Positions 16,081-26,125 of a stretch of 64,000 nucleotides of DNA are shown piece by piece (position 1 is the stretch's first letter; every line of letters starts with the position of its first letter). The stretch is from assembly GCA_021773355.1 (NCBI GenBank), contig JAJFKE010000011.1:124001-188000 (forward strand), given 5' to 3'. The DNA is from Gammaproteobacteria bacterium (GTDB lineage: Bacteria; Pseudomonadota; Gammaproteobacteria; Pseudomonadales; Pseudohongiellaceae). The notes below the pieces were generated by a model. That model had not been told where the DNA came from. It worked only from the letters and a program-made list of their open reading frames with translations, and ran no database searches. The position numbers and the translations under genes were made by a program.

Positions 16081-17865
16081 ATGAAACCGACTGATATCGC
16101 CGATCCGAACTACTTTCATAAAGTTGTTGACTGCCAGTGGGCATGCCCCGCTCATACACCAGTTCCCGAATACATAAGGCTGATTGCTGAGAAGCGCTAT
16201 TCTGATGCCTATATGATCAACTGGCACTCGAATGTGTTTCCAGGAATTCTTGGTCGTACCTGCGACCGACCCTGTGAACCTGCTTGCCGACGAGGAAGGG
16301 TTGAAGAGCAGCCGGTAGCAATTTGCCGTCTCAAACGAGTAGCCGCAGATTATAAATCGGATATTAGAGACCGTCTCCCACAAGCGCCAAAGAAAAAAAA
16401 TGGCAAACACATTGCCTTGATTGGCGCAGGCCCGGCTTCCCTGACAGTAGCCCGAGATTTATTACCACTAGGATATGAGATTACCTTGTTTGAGCGTGAC
16501 GCTGTCAGCGGCGGTGCAATGCGAACACAAATTCCTCGTTTTAGATTGCCAATAGAAGTATTAGAAGAAGAGTTAAACTACATCCTGGATATGGGTGTAA
16601 ATTGTCGTTTCGGTGAGGAAATTTCCAGTATGCAATCCCTGCTGCAAGAAGGCTATGACGCCATTTTTGTTGGTACAGGCGCGCCCCTGGGAAAATGGTT
16701 AGACTTGCCAGGACACAAAGAAGCCAGCGACAACATTCACACCGGAATAGAATGGCTTGCAAATGTTGCCTTCGAGCATATTTCAAGTGTTGGCAAAAAG
16801 GTATTGGTTCTAGGTGGCGGTAATACTGCAATGGATTGCTGTCGCACCTCAAAACGAATTGGCGGTGAAGATGTTACCGTGGTGGTTCGCAGCGGTTTTG
16901 ATGAAATGAAAGCATCTCCTTGGGAAATTGAAGATGCGATGAACGAAGACATACCTATTCTTAACTTTCACGTACCAAAGCGCTATATCGTTGAAGGCGG
17001 CAAATTAGTGGCTATGGAATTCGAAAAAGTACGCAAGGAAATCGATGCCGATGGCAGACGTCAACTAGTTCCCACCGGTGAAGAACCCGCTATTCTGCCT
17101 TGTGACGACGTGTTGTGCGCCATAGGACAGGAAAATAGCTTTCCTTGGATAGAACGAGACCTGGGTATTGAATTCGATAAATGGGAAGTACCTATTCTTA
17201 ACAAGTCCACATTTCAATCCACTAACGAAAAAGTGTTCTTTGGTGGCGATGCCGCACTTGGGCCAGACAATATAATTACGGCAGTAGCTCACGGACACGA
17301 TGCTGCGGTCTCTGTTCATATGCTCTGTGAAAAGCAAGATATAACTAAGCGACCTGACCCCCTTACAAATTTAAGTAGCCAGAAAATGGGGATTCACCAA
17401 TGGTCCTATGACAACGACATCAGTGCCGACTTCCGCTTTGCTGTTCCTCATGCAGATAAAAAACTCACGCTGAACGACATCAATATCGAAGTAGAACTAG
17501 GTTTCGATGAGCAGTTGGCCTTTAACGAAACTATGCGCTGCCTGAACTGCGATGTGCAAACTGTATTTACAGATAAGTTATGTATCGAATGTGACGCCTG
17601 TGTAGACATCTGCCCTACCGATTGTATTAGCTTCACGCAAAATCAAGGTGAAACCGAGCTCAGACTGAGCATGTTAGCCCCAGCTGAGAACATCGAGCAG
17701 GATCTGTATGTATCCGACATCCTGTCTACTGGCCGCATTATGGCGAAGAATGAAGACTTGTGTCTTCACTGTGGTCTATGCGCCGAGCGCTGCCCAACCA
17801 ATGCCTGGGACATGCAAAAATATTTATTCAATACTGCTAAAGCGGAAAACGCATGCCAGAGTTAA
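16081..17865 (+). CDS. GltD-like FAD/NAD(P)-binding flavoprotein with C-terminal 2[4Fe-4S] ferredoxin domain
   Basis: Electron-transfer subunit placed first in an operon with 2-oxoacid:ferredoxin oxidoreductase subunits. N-terminal cysteines C18, C22, C61, C65, C69 and C82 match the iron-sulfur part of glutamate synthase small subunit and dihydropyrimidine dehydrogenase. IGAGPASLTVA (FAD) begins near residue 113. VLGGGNTAMDC marks the NAD(P) site. The C terminus has two ferredoxin motifs, CIECDACVDICP and CLHCGLCAERCP. Probably it passes electrons between reduced ferredoxin sites of the oxidoreductase and NADP(H). The last 13 bp overlap the alpha-subunit start, suggesting coupled translation. 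AAGGAA lies 12 nt before the ATG. The redox partner and direction are inference from context. Confidence 0.87.
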   Translation: MKPTDIADPNYFHKVVDCQWACPAHTPVPEYIRLIAEKRYSDAYMINWHSNVFPGILGRTCDRPCEPACRRGRVEEQPVAICRLKRVAADYKSDIRDRLPQAPKKKNGKHIALIGAGPASLTVARDLLPLGYEITLFERDAVSGGAMRTQIPRFRLPIEVLEEELNYILDMGVNCRFGEEISSMQSLLQEGYDAIFVGTGAPLGKWLDLPGHKEASDNIHTGIEWLANVAFEHISSVGKKVLVLGGGNTAMDCCRTSKRIGGEDVTVVVRSGFDEMKASPWEIEDAMNEDIPILNFHVPKRYIVEGGKLVAMEFEKVRKEIDADGRRQLVPTGEEPAILPCDDVLCAIGQENSFPWIERDLGIEFDKWEVPILNKSTFQSTNEKVFFGGDAALGPDNIITAVAHGHDAAVSVHMLCEKQDITKRPDPLTNLSSQKMGIHQWSYDNDISADFRFAVPHADKKLTLNDINIEVELGFDEQLAFNETMRCLNCDVQTVFTDKLCIECDACVDICPTDCISFTQNQGETELRLSMLAPAENIEQDLYVSDILSTGRIMAKNEDLCLHCGLCAERCPTNAWDMQKYLFNTAKAENACQS

Positions 17866-19709
17866 TTCAAAGCTCCAAAGTCAGCACTATCACCAAGACC
17901 AACGACTTTGTGGTTAAGTTTGCGAATGTGAATGGTTCCGGTTCTGCCAGCGCAAATAGCATGTTCGCTAAAGCCGTATTTCGCATGGGAATTCCCATCA
18001 GTCCTCATAATATCTTTCCTTCAAACATTCAGGGCCTGCCCACCTGGTATGAGGTAAGAATAAGTGAGCAAGGTTATCTTGGCAGACGCGGGGGAGTTGA
18101 CCTGATTGTTGCCATGAACGAACAGACTATCGGCAAGGATATCGCCTCGGTGGTCCCCGGGGGTTATGTTCTGTATGACTCATCTAAGATGTTAGCTAAT
18201 GAATTGCTGCGTGATGATGTCACCTACTTGCCTATCCCTCTAAAAGATATATGTTTGACAGAGTTTGAAAAACCAGCGCAGCGACAATTGTTTAAAAACA
18301 TCGTCTACGTTGGAGCTTTATCGGCGTTTCTAAACATCGATTTCAAGGTGCTAACCGGTCTGGTTGGCGACCAGTTCAGGGGCAAGGAAAAATTAATTCT
18401 ACCCAATATCCATGCGCTTGAGCTCGGGCATCACTACGCCAGTGACAATTTTGAGTGCCCGTTGACTCTGAGATTAGAAAAAAGCAACAAAAACAGCAAC
18501 AAGATACTTATGGATGGGAACACAGCGATTGGTTTAGGCAGTGTTTACGGTGGAGCTACCATAGCAGCATGGTACCCCCTCACGCCTTCCACCTCGGTGG
18601 TGGATAGTTTTGGTAAATATTGCAAGCGGCTTCGAATAGACCCCGGCACCGGCAAGAAAAAGTATTCTATTGTCCAGGCGGAAGATGAATTAGCAGCAAT
18701 TGGAATAGCTATCGGTGCAGGATGGAATGGTGCGCGTGCATTTACCGCCACCAGTGGCCCCGGTATTTCTTTAATGCAGGAGTTTTTGGGCCTCGCCTAC
18801 TTCTCGGAAGTGCCGATAGTGCTCTTCAATATTCAGAGGGTAGGACCATCGACCGGCATGCCGACTCGTTCGCAACAGGGCGATTTACTGTGCTGTGCCT
18901 ATGCCTCACACGGCGACACCAAACACGTGTTGCTTTTGCCATCAACACCCAAGGAATGTTTCGAATTCGCCGCGGACGCTTTTGACCTGGCAGACCGAAT
19001 TCAGTCTCCCGTTATCGTAATGAGTGACCTGGAACTCGGCATGAACGAACAAATTTGTGATCCTCTAAACTGGGATGACAAACGACTATATGATCGAGGC
19101 AAAGTCTTAACAGCCGATCAACTCGAAGAAATTGAGAAGTACGGCCGCTATCTGGATACCGACGGCGATGGCATTCCGTATCGCACCTACCCGGGTACAC
19201 ACCCAGAAAAAGGCAGCTATTTCACGCGAGGCAGCTCACACGATTCCTATGCCGCCTACACCGAAGACGGCACAGTTTACGCCGAAGTCATGGACAGACT
19301 GGCCTTAAAGATGAGAACGGCGGTTAATTATTTACCAGAGCCGGAAGTGTCCGAAACGACGACAAATAAGCTGGCAATGCTTTATATAGGCACAACGGCA
19401 AGTGCAGTAAATGAAGTATTGGATAACTTGGCAAAAAAAGGAATAACAATGGACACCATGCGTGTTCGAGCATTTCCTTTTCACGACAGCGTGGCGGAAT
19501 TTATAGAGAACCACGAATTGGTTTATATCATCGAACAAAATCGAGATGCACAATTGAAGAGCCTGCTTAAAATTGAATGCAATACCCACGAAGAAAAAAT
19601 GCACTCAATCCTAAGCTATGACGGCGTCCTGATTACCGCACAATTTATAGAGCAGTCTATTCTGGAATCCATGCAAAAACTGGATGCAAGCGGCGAAGTG
19701 CCCGCATAA
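17853..19709 (+). CDS. korA: 2-oxoacid:ferredoxin oxidoreductase, gamma-alpha fused subunit (KorA-like)
   Basis: Catalytic subunit of a thiamine-dependent enzyme that decarboxylates a 2-oxoacid, probably 2-oxoglutarate, to acyl-CoA and reduced ferredoxin. Residues about 15-190 are the gamma domain (NVNGSGSASANSMFAKA). From about 210 the alpha domain follows, with GNTAIGLGSVYGGATIAAWYP-type segments, SGPGISLMQEFLGLAYFSE and PTRSQQGDLL. Length 618 fits the fused KorA form. It overlaps the flavoprotein gene by 13 bp and is 18 bp before the beta subunit. The gene symbol is by family; the substrate was not proven. Confidence 0.88.
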   Translation: MPELIQSSKVSTITKTNDFVVKFANVNGSGSASANSMFAKAVFRMGIPISPHNIFPSNIQGLPTWYEVRISEQGYLGRRGGVDLIVAMNEQTIGKDIASVVPGGYVLYDSSKMLANELLRDDVTYLPIPLKDICLTEFEKPAQRQLFKNIVYVGALSAFLNIDFKVLTGLVGDQFRGKEKLILPNIHALELGHHYASDNFECPLTLRLEKSNKNSNKILMDGNTAIGLGSVYGGATIAAWYPLTPSTSVVDSFGKYCKRLRIDPGTGKKKYSIVQAEDELAAIGIAIGAGWNGARAFTATSGPGISLMQEFLGLAYFSEVPIVLFNIQRVGPSTGMPTRSQQGDLLCCAYASHGDTKHVLLLPSTPKECFEFAADAFDLADRIQSPVIVMSDLELGMNEQICDPLNWDDKRLYDRGKVLTADQLEEIEKYGRYLDTDGDGIPYRTYPGTHPEKGSYFTRGSSHDSYAAYTEDGTVYAEVMDRLALKMRTAVNYLPEPEVSETTTNKLAMLYIGTTASAVNEVLDNLAKKGITMDTMRVRAFPFHDSVAEFIENHELVYIIEQNRDAQLKSLLKIECNTHEEKMHSILSYDGVLITAQFIEQSILESMQKLDASGEVPA

Positions 19710-19727
19710 CTAAGTGGCAAACAAATT

Positions 19728-20783
19728 ATGAGCTATATAAGCAAACCGAAATTTAAGCATCCACAGATGCGAACCAATGATATCGGTTTAACACGAAGAG
19801 ACTACGAAGGCACGTTAACTACACTGTGTGGTGGCTGTGGGCACGATTCTATTAGTGCAGCTATTATCCAAGCCGCATCGGAAATGTCGTTACAGCCTCA
19901 TCAAGTTGCGAAGATATCGGGCATCGGTTGTTCCTCAAAAATCCCCTCATATTTCATGAGCAAGGCCCATGGATTTAACTCTGTACATGGAAGAATGCCC
20001 TCTGTTGCCACCGGGGCTAATATTGCTAACAAAGATCTGTATTATATTGGAATATCGGGAGATGGTGATAGTGCGTCCATCGGTCTTGGTCAGTTCTGTC
20101 ACATAGTCAGACGTCGCATCAACATGCTGTATATAGTAGCTAACAACGGTACCTACGGATTAACCAAGGGCCAGTTATCCGCCACAGCAGATATAGGTTC
20201 TAAGACAAAGTCGGGCGAGGAAAGCCAATTTGATAGTATAGATATGGCAACACTGGCAATCGAACTGGGTGCCAGCTTTGTTGCTCGCAGCTTTTCAGGC
20301 GACAAGAAACAACTAGTTCCTTTACTGCAAGCCGGCCTAACCCACAAGGGCTTCGCCTTTATAGACGTCATCTCCCCCTGTGTCACCTTCAATAACACTG
20401 ATTTTTCTACCCATGGCTATAAAAACACTTGGGAAAATAATATCGCATTGAGTGAAATTGATTTCGTTCCAATGCGGGAAGAAATTACTACCAGTTATGC
20501 TCCTGGAAAAGAAAAGGAAATTACCCTGCATGATGGCTCGGTTGTACACCTGCACAAGACAGGGAATAACTATGACCCTTCAGATAAAGAGAATGCTCTG
20601 CATCACATAAACGCCTATAAGAAGCAGGGAAAAATAGCCACGGGGCTGCTCTATATTAATCAGACCACGTCTGACCTGCATGAACTACAGGATACGGTGA
20701 ACAAACCCTTCAATAGCCTTGGTGTGCAGGACCTATGCCCAGGAAGCGAAGCCCTGCGTGATATAAACAGTACATTTCGCTAG
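19728..20783 (+). CDS. korB: 2-oxoacid:ferredoxin oxidoreductase beta subunit (KorB-like)
   Basis: Thiamine diphosphate-binding partner of the gamma-alpha subunit. CGGCGHDS (residue about 36) and SGIGCSSKIP provide cysteines for the [4Fe-4S] cluster. ISGDGDSASIG is the TPP/Mg motif and NNGTYGLTKGQ completes it. The C-terminal cysteine in SPCVTFNN is also conserved in the family. Length 351 is normal. It ends 5 bp before the stop of djlA on the other strand. All three subunits needed for a soluble oxidoreductase with NADP(H)-linked electron exit appear to be encoded together here. Confidence 0.9.
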   Translation: MSYISKPKFKHPQMRTNDIGLTRRDYEGTLTTLCGGCGHDSISAAIIQAASEMSLQPHQVAKISGIGCSSKIPSYFMSKAHGFNSVHGRMPSVATGANIANKDLYYIGISGDGDSASIGLGQFCHIVRRRINMLYIVANNGTYGLTKGQLSATADIGSKTKSGEESQFDSIDMATLAIELGASFVARSFSGDKKQLVPLLQAGLTHKGFAFIDVISPCVTFNNTDFSTHGYKNTWENNIALSEIDFVPMREEITTSYAPGKEKEITLHDGSVVHLHKTGNNYDPSDKENALHHINAYKKQGKIATGLLYINQTTSDLHELQDTVNKPFNSLGVQDLCPGSEALRDINSTFR

Positions 20784-20788
20784 AAAAT

Positions 20789-21571
20789 TTATTTCCGCTG
20801 AGCCTTAAGCAAATCGTAGGCTGCTTTTATTGACTGCGTTTTTTGTGTCGCTATGTCTATCATCTCCTCCGGCAAACCCTTTGCTACAAGCTTGTCCGGA
20901 TGGTGTTGATTCATTTGTTTGCGGTAAGCTTTCTTCAATTCCACATCAGTGCAGTTCGTCGACACACCTAATAGCTCATACGCTGCTTGAATATTATCTG
21001 CGGAAGATTCTTCGTTGGCGAAGTGCGCCTGACCAGAGAGTCGGCTGAGCAAAGCATTAAAATCAGCAGCAGAATAACCTAGGTCTCTGGCAATACTCTC
21101 TAATAAAGCTTGTTCACGGGAGTCTAGTCGGCCGTCGGCGAAGGCCGTAGCGATAATAATTTCCAGGAACATTTGAATAAGATTGCGACGTCTAAAACAT
21201 TCTCGCTTGAATTGAGCAAGTATTTCGTGCACTGGAAAGCTATCTTTCTTTCCCTCATTGAATAAATTCATGGCCACAGTGCGCTGCTGAGAAGTTAAAC
21301 GCATCTGCTGCATGACTTGTTCAGCCATGGCTATTTCATCTTTGGTGACCCGCCCATCAGATTTCGCGACATAGCCCATTAAAGCGAAAGTGGTGGTAAA
21401 GAAAACCGACTGCACTCGTTCGGTAGCACCCAGACCCAGGGAATCGTCCAGGCTCAGGCCATCCAATCCCCCATCAAAATAATTGCCCAGAGCCGCGCCT
21501 AGAACCGCGCCCAAAGGTCCACCCATCATGAAGCCGAAGGCGCCCCCTACTACTTTTCCCCACCAACTCAT
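20789..21571 (-). CDS. djlA: Co-chaperone DjlA (TerB-like domain plus J domain)
   Basis: Membrane-associated DnaJ-like regulator of DnaK. The N terminus is a Gly/Ala-rich hydrophobic segment with glycine-zipper character (WWGKVVGGAFGFMMGGP and LGAALGNYFDGGL), expected as the single membrane anchor. A TerB-like helical domain spans about residues 55-175 (YVAKSDGRVTKDEI, FADGRLDSREQALL). The J domain is at the C terminus with the HPD tripeptide in NQHHPDKLV. Length 260 agrees with E. coli DjlA (271). It is the last gene of the smc-zipA-ligA-transglycosylase direction and converges on korB. Confidence 0.92.
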   Translation of the reverse strand: MSWWGKVVGGAFGFMMGGPLGAVLGAALGNYFDGGLDGLSLDDSLGLGATERVQSVFFTTTFALMGYVAKSDGRVTKDEIAMAEQVMQQMRLTSQQRTVAMNLFNEGKKDSFPVHEILAQFKRECFRRRNLIQMFLEIIIATAFADGRLDSREQALLESIARDLGYSAADFNALLSRLSGQAHFANEESSADNIQAAYELLGVSTNCTDVELKKAYRKQMNQHHPDKLVAKGLPEEMIDIATQKTQSIKAAYDLLKAQRK

Positions 21572-21694
21572 AGTCTGCCCTGCTACTGTCTGTTAAATAT
21601 TAGTTAAAAATAAGATGTCGGATTTTTCGCCAACGCCAACTACGCAGGCCGGTTAAGCGCGAGTGCATCTTTCGTCTTTCAAAGTTTGAGTCTA

Positions 21695-22312
21695 CTAGGA
21701 AATAAGGCGTTGAAACCAATTCTTGTCCAACTCATGTCTACAACTGTCGAGCTGAGCGGAGAACCTACTCGAATTTGTCTGGACTCGGCCCGCAGCGTCG
21801 AGCAACCACTGCTTACTGCGATAAGAGGCTCTTTGATAGCCACCATTCCCCTCATGGTAGGCATAATACAGATGCATTGCATTGTCTCTTGAAATGTTGC
21901 TAATTCGGGTGGAATTGGCGTTATACCAGCCAACGAAATCGATGGCGTCGGAGAAATTTGCACGTGAGGCGCGATTATTCCCAGATTTGATTTCATATTC
22001 TTGCCAAGTTTCATCGAGAGCTTGGGCATACCCGAACGCCGAGGATGGTCTGCGCCCAGGGAAGATCCAAAGAAATCGATTTCTCGCTGGCTTTGCCTTG
22101 GCCCTAAATGAGGATTCCTGATAGATGAAAGCCATATTAACAGCCACCGGTATCCCCCATCTCTGCTCAGCATTCTTGGCTGCCTTATACCAGGCACGGC
22201 GGTCGTCAAATATCTCGCAAATATTAGCCACACTGGCCGGTGGCGAACTTACGCAAGAAGCCAGAACAACCAACAGGGGCACACAAACTAATTTATTTAC
22301 TGGATTAATCAT
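21695..22312 (-). CDS. Lipoprotein with lytic transglycosylase (SLT) domain
   Basis: Outer-membrane-directed lipoprotein with a soluble lytic transglycosylase fold that would cleave peptidoglycan glycan chains. A lipobox, LASC, ends the signal peptide at residue 20 (VCVPLLVVLASC). The catalytic Glu is in IYQESSFRAKA. GYAQALDETW and YAYHEGNGGY are the remaining SLT signatures. Length 205 makes it a short family member. It follows ligA by 31 bp and is followed by djlA after 123 bp, all leftward. The best match by memory is to small transglycosylase lipoproteins near ligA in Pseudomonas-like genomes, but I give no symbol. Confidence 0.87.
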   Translation of the reverse strand: MINPVNKLVCVPLLVVLASCVSSPPASVANICEIFDDRRAWYKAAKNAEQRWGIPVAVNMAFIYQESSFRAKAKPARNRFLWIFPGRRPSSAFGYAQALDETWQEYEIKSGNNRASRANFSDAIDFVGWYNANSTRISNISRDNAMHLYYAYHEGNGGYQRASYRSKQWLLDAAGRVQTNSSRFSAQLDSCRHELDKNWFQRLIS

Positions 22313-22343
22313 GACAACTCGAAATTCCGGCCTCTAGCTGAAT

Positions 22344-26125
<3,782 letters not shown>

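What the first reader, a model, noticed from the sequence alone, without database searches (positions are those of the whole stretch)
16081..20783. 2-oxoacid:ferredoxin oxidoreductase operon with a fused GltD-like flavoprotein in a respiratory lineage
Three genes encode a GltD/DPD-type FAD/NAD(P) protein with a C-terminal two-cluster ferredoxin domain, a gamma-alpha fused KorA and KorB. No separate ferredoxin gene is needed. It could link 2-oxoglutarate oxidation to NADPH or run reductive carboxylation. The rest of the window (FadBA, UbiG, ordinary core) points to an aerobic heterotroph, where such an enzyme is less expected. The 13-bp gene overlap and shared direction support one complex.
Basis: partly seen in the sequence, partly recalled or inferred. 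Interest (0 to 1): 0.55.

Follow-up and report, generated by a model that had tools for sequence, protein, structure and literature searches.

The report
Lipoate-free 2-oxoglutarate oxidation enzyme operon
Three neighbouring genes encode an iron-sulfur enzyme that most likely oxidises 2-oxoglutarate and passes the electrons to NAD(P), and in some tiny-genome relatives it appears to stand in for the usual TCA-cycle enzyme.

Summary
The operon is real: korC (16081-17865), korA (17853-19709), korB (19728-20783), + strand. KorC is a GltD/Nfn/DsrL-like flavoprotein with a C-terminal two-cluster ferredoxin domain; KorA and KorB are 2-oxoacid:acceptor oxidoreductase subunits. It is a conserved C-A-B module of Proteobacteria and Bacteroidota with its own KorB clade. 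This genome and most carriers sampled also have SucA, so here it is an accessory. The main exception is a SAR86-like order, where 54 of 63 carriers show no SucA. In its one-contig genome G319, sdhCDAB runs into sucCD, sucA-sucB-lpd are missing, and the trio holds the only POR_N protein. That is the best evidence for 2-oxoglutarate; G319 lacks Lpd and E2 homologs altogether, so pyruvate stays open. Reductive carboxylation found no support. A 2024 SAR86 paper already mentions a 2-oxoglutarate ferredoxin oxidoreductase in an alternative TCA cycle.

The parts
16081..17865 (+). korC: GltD/Nfn/DsrL-like iron-sulfur flavoprotein, 594 aa; N-terminal Fe-S region aa 17-93, FAD/NAD(P) region aa 110-405, C-terminal two-cluster ferredoxin domain aa 501-575
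16885..16893 (+). V269-R270-S271, at the place of the YRR motif of NADP-using relatives
   Evidence: alignment; 127 of 127 rows
17488..17559 (+). EVELGF...RCLNCDVQ element (aa 470-493), aligned with the N-terminal residues 25-48 of two Nfn-type large subunits but placed behind the flavin domain; C487 and C490 in 127 of 127 rows
17853..19709 (+). korA: fused gamma-alpha subunit, 618 aa (TIGR03710 over cut-off); YPLTP motif aa 241-245, R329, T334
19728..20783 (+). korB: beta subunit with thiamine diphosphate domain and four conserved Cys (34, 37, 68, 218) for one [4Fe-4S] cluster; K71, L145, K147

Best explanation
The trio encodes a lipoate-independent 2-oxoglutarate:NAD(P)+ oxidoreductase complex. 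KorAB (thiamine diphosphate, CoA, one [4Fe-4S]) oxidatively decarboxylates 2-oxoglutarate to succinyl-CoA; electrons pass through the KorB cluster to the ferredoxin domain and FAD of KorC and end on NAD(P)+. In this genome, which also has SucA, it would be a second route to succinyl-CoA; in a SAR86-like genome without SucAB it would be the only one found. Shown: genes, domains, conserved ligand residues, conserved module, absence of sucAB and lpd beside an otherwise kept sdh-suc cluster in one one-contig genome that has the trio. Inferred: complex formation, substrate, electron path, acceptor and direction. NAD+ is favoured over NADP+ on one motif only.
For: Domains and families. KorB keeps the four cluster Cys; KorA keeps the carboxylate-binding Thr and Arg, and KorB the Lys and Leu that Sulfolobus work ties to substrate choice (PMC5020499, passages read). 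C-A-B order in the 69 of 80 named loci in which all three genes were found, from Alpha-, Beta-, Gammaproteobacteria and Bacteroidota. SucA is missing in 3 of 29 other carriers of the class sample: G319, G456, G510. In G319 sdhCDAB is followed directly by sucCD without sucA-sucB-lpd; the trio is about 10 kb away; NADP-isocitrate dehydrogenase, AcnB, citrate synthase and SucCD are kept; tblastn finds no SucA, SucB or Lpd at E 0.001; the trio KorA is the one POR_N match at E 1e-10. G456 and G510 have sucCD and no sucAB in the 19.9 kb read around it. In the order of G319 none of the 51 carriers of families f207 and f226 has SucA, while the 105 SucA-bearing genomes are all in f217 or f76.
Against: No activity is measured here. 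G319 shows no Lpd, no E2 homolog and no AceE motif, so the trio could be there for pyruvate. Of 199 genomes in that order 40 have neither KorC nor SucA, 7 of them among the 40 good ones; one of these, G563, keeps korB and the 3' part of korA but not korC. SucA is present in 103 of 103 good relatives in the window's order, of which only 49 have KorC, and in 49 of 50 named carriers tested, a few only as fragments, so no need for the trio is visible there. In the SAR86-like order 9 genomes have both. Other 2-oxoacid oxidoreductases, and SucB, were not searched across G456 and G510. The Asp468 position of StOFOR1, needed for 2-oxoglutarate there, is Ser/Thr here, and the two 2-oxoglutarate enzymes have Arg where KorB has Lys71. 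The curated 2-oxoglutarate-specific models match far below cut-off.
Confidence: 0.6

Rival explanations
1. A broad 2-oxoacid:NAD(P)+ oxidoreductase that serves pyruvate as much as 2-oxoglutarate, like the Sulfolobus enzymes.
For: G319 lacks detectable Lpd, E2 and AceE motif, so acetyl-CoA from pyruvate would also need a replacement. The pocket keeps the Ser, Thr, Lys and Leu of the broad StOFORs.
Against: G319 keeps TCA enzymes on both sides of the gap, which a pyruvate-only enzyme would not close. AceE was sought only by one recalled motif.
Confidence: 0.2
2. A ferredoxin-reducing 2-oxoglutarate oxidoreductase that feeds low-potential reductions such as aromatic ring reduction, as the SAR86 paper suggests with a reference to Thauera.
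For: The SAR86 paper states this reading (PMC11582366, passages read). KorC has several clusters that could pass electrons out.
Against: No overlap between the 10 genomes with benzoyl-CoA reductase A (E 1e-60) and the 30 with KorC among 369 of the class. In the 8 bcr loci read, KorA relatives are distant (27-33% identity), as are the 7 KorB relatives (38-42%), and no KorC relative was found in the stretches read at E 1e-5; six of the KorB form another clade.
Confidence: 0.12
3. A reductive (CO2-fixing) 2-oxoglutarate synthase driven by NADPH.
For: The enzyme family is reversible in principle (recalled).
Against: About 200 mV uphill from NAD(P)H (recalled potentials); SucA is present in most carriers sampled outside the SAR86-like order. 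Other reductive TCA genes were not searched.
Confidence: 0.03

Closest known systems
2-oxoglutarate:NADP+ oxidoreductase of Azoarcus evansii (Ebenau-Jehle et al. 2003; recalled, paper not held)
   Same: As recalled, a KorAB enzyme with an added NADP-linked flavoprotein subunit
   Different: No sequence was compared here; YRR is VRS in KorC, so the acceptor may differ
Two-subunit 2-oxoacid:ferredoxin oxidoreductases: 6n2n (Magnetococcus, organism recalled) and Sulfolobus tokodaii StOFOR1/2 (5b48, 5b46)
   Same: KorA and KorB homology; StOFORs have TPP and one [4Fe-4S]
   Different: In the KorB tree they lie outside the trio clade; no flavoprotein partner appears in the passages read (PMC5020499)
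DsrL, NAD(P)H:acceptor iron-sulfur flavoprotein of sulfur metabolism (PMC7596348, abstract and passages read)
   Same: Same domain order: N-terminal Fe-S, FAD with embedded NAD(P) domain, linker, C-terminal two-cluster ferredoxin
   Different: KorC is linked to oxoacid oxidoreductase genes, which the DsrL authors used as a reason to leave genes out
NfnB/NfnL and the GltD family
   Same: Central flavin domain; matches over about 400-440 aa at E 2.7e-59 to 1.6e-73 for Nfn-type and related chains
   Different: RCLxC element sits behind the flavin domain; YRR is VRS
Mycobacterium tuberculosis KOR (Rv2455c/Rv2454c; PMC2773412, abstract and passages read)
   Same: A KOR completing the oxidative TCA cycle in an aerobe
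   Different: The paper reports no measurable reduction of NAD+ or NADP+ with KG as donor; no KorC in the passages read
2-oxoglutarate ferredoxin oxidoreductase of SAR86 families RedeBAC7D11 and Magnimaribacteraceae (PMC11582366)
   Same: Probably this trio: the order scanned has two families with the trio and no SucA, and POR_N in the same genomes save two. That the order is SAR86 is my inference
   Different: The paper reads it as a source of reduced ferredoxin; no flavoprotein partner in the passages read

Membership tests
2-oxoacid:acceptor oxidoreductase (OFOR) superfamily, KorAB type | POR gamma, POR_N and TPP domains | tested here: met
   TIGR03710 over cut-off
2-oxoacid:acceptor oxidoreductase (OFOR) superfamily, KorAB type | Four Cys for the proximal [4Fe-4S] cluster in the beta subunit | tested here: met
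   C34, C37, C68 in 86 of 86 rows, C218 in 85 of 86, one gap
2-oxoacid:acceptor oxidoreductase (OFOR) superfamily, KorAB type | YPITP Thr and the carboxylate Arg | tested here: met
   T244 in 119 of 123 rows and R329 in 116 of 123, the rest gaps; the motif's Ile is Leu in 35 rows, the window's included
2-oxoglutarate oxidoreductase | Activity with 2-oxoglutarate | not testable with these tools
   indirect only: sucAB absence in G319
2-oxoglutarate oxidoreductase | Curated 2-oxoglutarate-specific model over cut-off | tested here: not met
   PRK09627 172.6 bits against 579, PRK09628 132.3 against 364
2-oxoglutarate oxidoreductase | Pocket residues of StOFOR1: Lys49 beta, Leu123 beta, Asp468 alpha | tested here: inconclusive
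   K71 and L145 in 86 of 86; Asp468 position Ser 40 and Thr 74 of 123, 9 gaps; known 2-oxoglutarate enzymes differ at these places too
NADP-using NfnB/DsrL-2 type flavoproteins | YRR motif | tested here: not met
   VRS in 127 of 127 rows
DsrL | Domain order with C-terminal two-cluster ferredoxin | tested here: met
DsrL | Gene not linked to oxoacid oxidoreductase genes | tested here: not met
   linked to korAB; criterion
DsrL | Genome with dsrAB | not tested
   dsrAB was not searched
Bcr-linked KorAB | Linkage to bcr genes and membership of their KorB clade | tested here: not met
   no bcrA match in the own genome
Azoarcus evansii 2-oxoglutarate:NADP+ oxidoreductase | Sequence similarity of all three subunits | not tested
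   no sequence at hand; paper not held

The most novel reading that the evidence does not exclude
An NAD(P)-linked, lipoate-free oxidoreductase has replaced the 2-oxoglutarate dehydrogenase complex, and perhaps pyruvate dehydrogenase too, in two families of abundant surface-ocean SAR86-like bacteria, so that an oxygen-exposed, oxidative TCA cycle runs on an enzyme type usually assigned to anaerobes; the window's lineage keeps both versions.
Probability: 0.4. Interest if true: 0.7.

Novelty: new variant of a known kind. Interest (0 to 1): 0.5.

Why it matters
A self-contained three-gene module that closes the TCA cycle without lipoate, E2 or Lpd would explain how some streamlined marine bacteria live without sucAB, and would correct the reading of these genes as a ferredoxin source. 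It gives a simple assay: 2-oxoglutarate, CoA and NAD+ or NADP+ with three purified proteins.

Tried and rejected
Rejected: reductive carboxylation and aromatic-ring-reduction roles (see rivals). Tried without gain: upstream FNR/Anr boxes in 120 upstream regions of 250 bases: at most one mismatch in 2 regions against 1 and 0 for two control patterns, at most two mismatches in 16 against 10 and 6; no clear excess. Neighbour genes: lineage-wise synteny only, with ligA in 19 of the 97 stretches compared and zipA-like and smc-like genes in fewer, in the window's relatives and Halieaceae; PQQ-like genes (named by eye) beside the trio in Bradyrhizobium and allies. AlphaFold model of KorC from 22 sequences: mean pLDDT 53.4, both Fe-S ends mostly below 50, so not used and no fold search made. 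Literature: ten searches were answered. The papers used came from 18, 25 and 58; in the listings of the others I saw none on this trio as such, but I opened few of them (PMC8307300, passages, nothing on this trio). No wider claim of absence from print is made.

Counts to read with care: the 127 KorC, 123 KorA and 86 KorB rows include some genomes twice (the own genome in KorC and KorA, others under both a named and an unnamed record); 121 KorC are distinct after trimming. Of 80 named loci all had KorC, 78 KorA and 69 all three; L052 ends inside korC, L123 has some room but no KorA was found, and L077 and L127 have inserted sequence inside the operon. Some ORF starts in my script are too far upstream. 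SucA in named genomes was asked for 50 of the 80 loci. The KorB tree used 40 sequences chosen by me, four of them core segments only. Order-wide absence rests on the tool's first look at draft genomes, most of them under 90% complete.

Full report
The observation. Pfam and NCBIfam place KorC among GltD/Nfn-like flavoproteins (best model PRK12771, below its cut-off, matched over aa 7-579) with a C-terminal two-cluster ferredoxin domain, KorA in TIGR03710 (over cut-off) and KorB near the PorB/KorB models. The window belongs to a 5.08-Mb genome; a named relative with 84% identical KorC is OM182 bacterium MED-G28.

The module. KorC was sought in 146 genomes of the window's order: 77 have it at E 1e-100, 49 of 103 good ones, 18 of 56 genera. 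I fetched 16 longer loci of carriers; all 16 have all three genes. A scan of named genomes gave 80 loci, the best of 587, from Alpha-, Beta- and Gammaproteobacteria and Bacteroidota, among them Bradyrhizobium, Neoroseomonas, Ramlibacter, Halioglobus, Tahibacter, Runella and Saprospirales. 69 of the 80 show all three genes, in the order C-A-B on one strand; most of the other 11 end soon after korC. In a class sample 30 of 369 genomes have KorC at E 1e-150, the own genome included. Of 17 Cys checked in KorC, 15 are Cys in 127 of 127 rows and two in 126 of 127 with one row cut.

What the anatomy says. KorB keeps the cluster Cys and the Lys and Leu near the substrate; KorA keeps the Thr and Arg that hold the carboxylate. 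The Asp468 position of StOFOR1 is Ser or Thr. KorC begins too late to hold the first two N-terminal Cys of Nfn proteins, but residues 470-493, with C487 and C490, align with just that N-terminal element. I infer that these two Cys complete the distal cluster from the C-terminal side; the alignment with formate dehydrogenase-type fusions runs through the same element behind the flavin domain. The structure prediction was too poor to test this. At the NADP phosphate site, YRR of NfnB and of NADP-using DsrL-2 (PMC7596348, abstract and passages) is VRS in 127 of 127 KorC rows. One Arg is kept, so this points towards NAD+ but does not prove it.

Relation to SucAB. The window's genome has SucA in a cluster with genes that I name sucB, lpd, sucC, sucD and sdh by order and by eye, and a second KorAB pair without flavoprotein, whose KorB falls outside the trio clade in a tree of 40 sequences (29 of 29 trio KorB together, support 0.89). 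SucA is present in 103 of 103 good genomes of the window's order and in 49 of 50 named carriers tested, 47 over the cut-off. So in these carriers the trio is an extra. In the class sample 26 of the 29 other carriers have SucA and three do not: G319 (1.19 Mb, one contig, 97% complete), G456 and G510. In G319 sdhCDAB runs straight into sucCD; sucA, sucB and lpd give no tblastn match at E 0.001; isocitrate dehydrogenase (NADP), AcnB, citrate synthase and SucCD are present. The trio lies at about 769.6-774.3 kb, some 10 kb from sdhC, and its KorA is the only POR_N match (E 1e-10). G456 and G510 have sucCD and no sucAB in the 19.9 kb read around it; other oxidoreductases and SucB elsewhere were not searched there.

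The order of G319. Of 199 genomes, 63 have KorC, 105 SucA and 63 POR_N (the same genomes save G596 and G679). From the lists: 54 KorC only, 96 SucA only, 9 both, 40 neither; among the 40 good genomes 7 have neither. The 51 carriers in families f207 and f226 have no SucA; 12 carriers are in f217, 9 of them with SucA; f76 has no carrier. This reflects few evolutionary events, not 199 independent ones. The 40 genomes with neither are unexplained. One, G563, has der directly beside the last part of korA, then korB and purC, with korC missing (gene names by likeness to G319 and by eye); assembly fault and real deletion cannot be told apart.

Not the Bcr-linked enzyme. The SAR86 paper refers to Thauera's enzyme (Dorner and Boll 2002, not held). 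Genomes with bcrA (10 of 369) and with KorC (30 of 369) do not overlap. Of the 10, I read loci of 8: 8 have a KorA relative, 7 a KorB relative, at 27-33% and 38-42% identity, and no KorC relative was found in the stretches read.

Judgement. The trio most likely works as a 2-oxoacid:NAD(P)+ oxidoreductase, with 2-oxoglutarate the likeliest substrate. As G319 seems to lack Lpd, E2 and AceE too, pyruvate stays open. The operon is a new variant of a known kind, partly noticed in print: DsrL authors set such linked genes aside and SAR86 authors listed the enzyme.

Noticed in passing
G000:C16:618291-621217 (L133 6292-9218): A second korAB pair (643 and 332 aa) of another clade without a flavoprotein gene among the ORFs listed beside it; this genome thus has three candidate routes from 2-oxoglutarate.
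   Followed up: partly
G319 (L171-L230): A 1.19-Mb gammaproteobacterial genome with no detectable Lpd, SucA, SucB or AceE motif: possibly no lipoate-dependent 2-oxoacid dehydrogenase at all.
   Followed up: partly
L265 9400-11020 (G563): Only the 3' part of korA (from about residue 461) and korB are there; korC is missing beside der, although the genome is one contig.
   Followed up: partly
L066, L075 and other Bradyrhizobium and allied loci: The trio lies next to genes that look like pqqB-pqqE (named by eye) and a small protein of unknown role.
   Followed up: no
window 20789-26125: DnaJ-like gene, lysozyme-like gene, ligA and zipA-like gene (named by eye) beside the trio; ligA and its neighbours are also beside the trio in Halieaceae, in another orientation, which suggests an old shared location.
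   Followed up: partly
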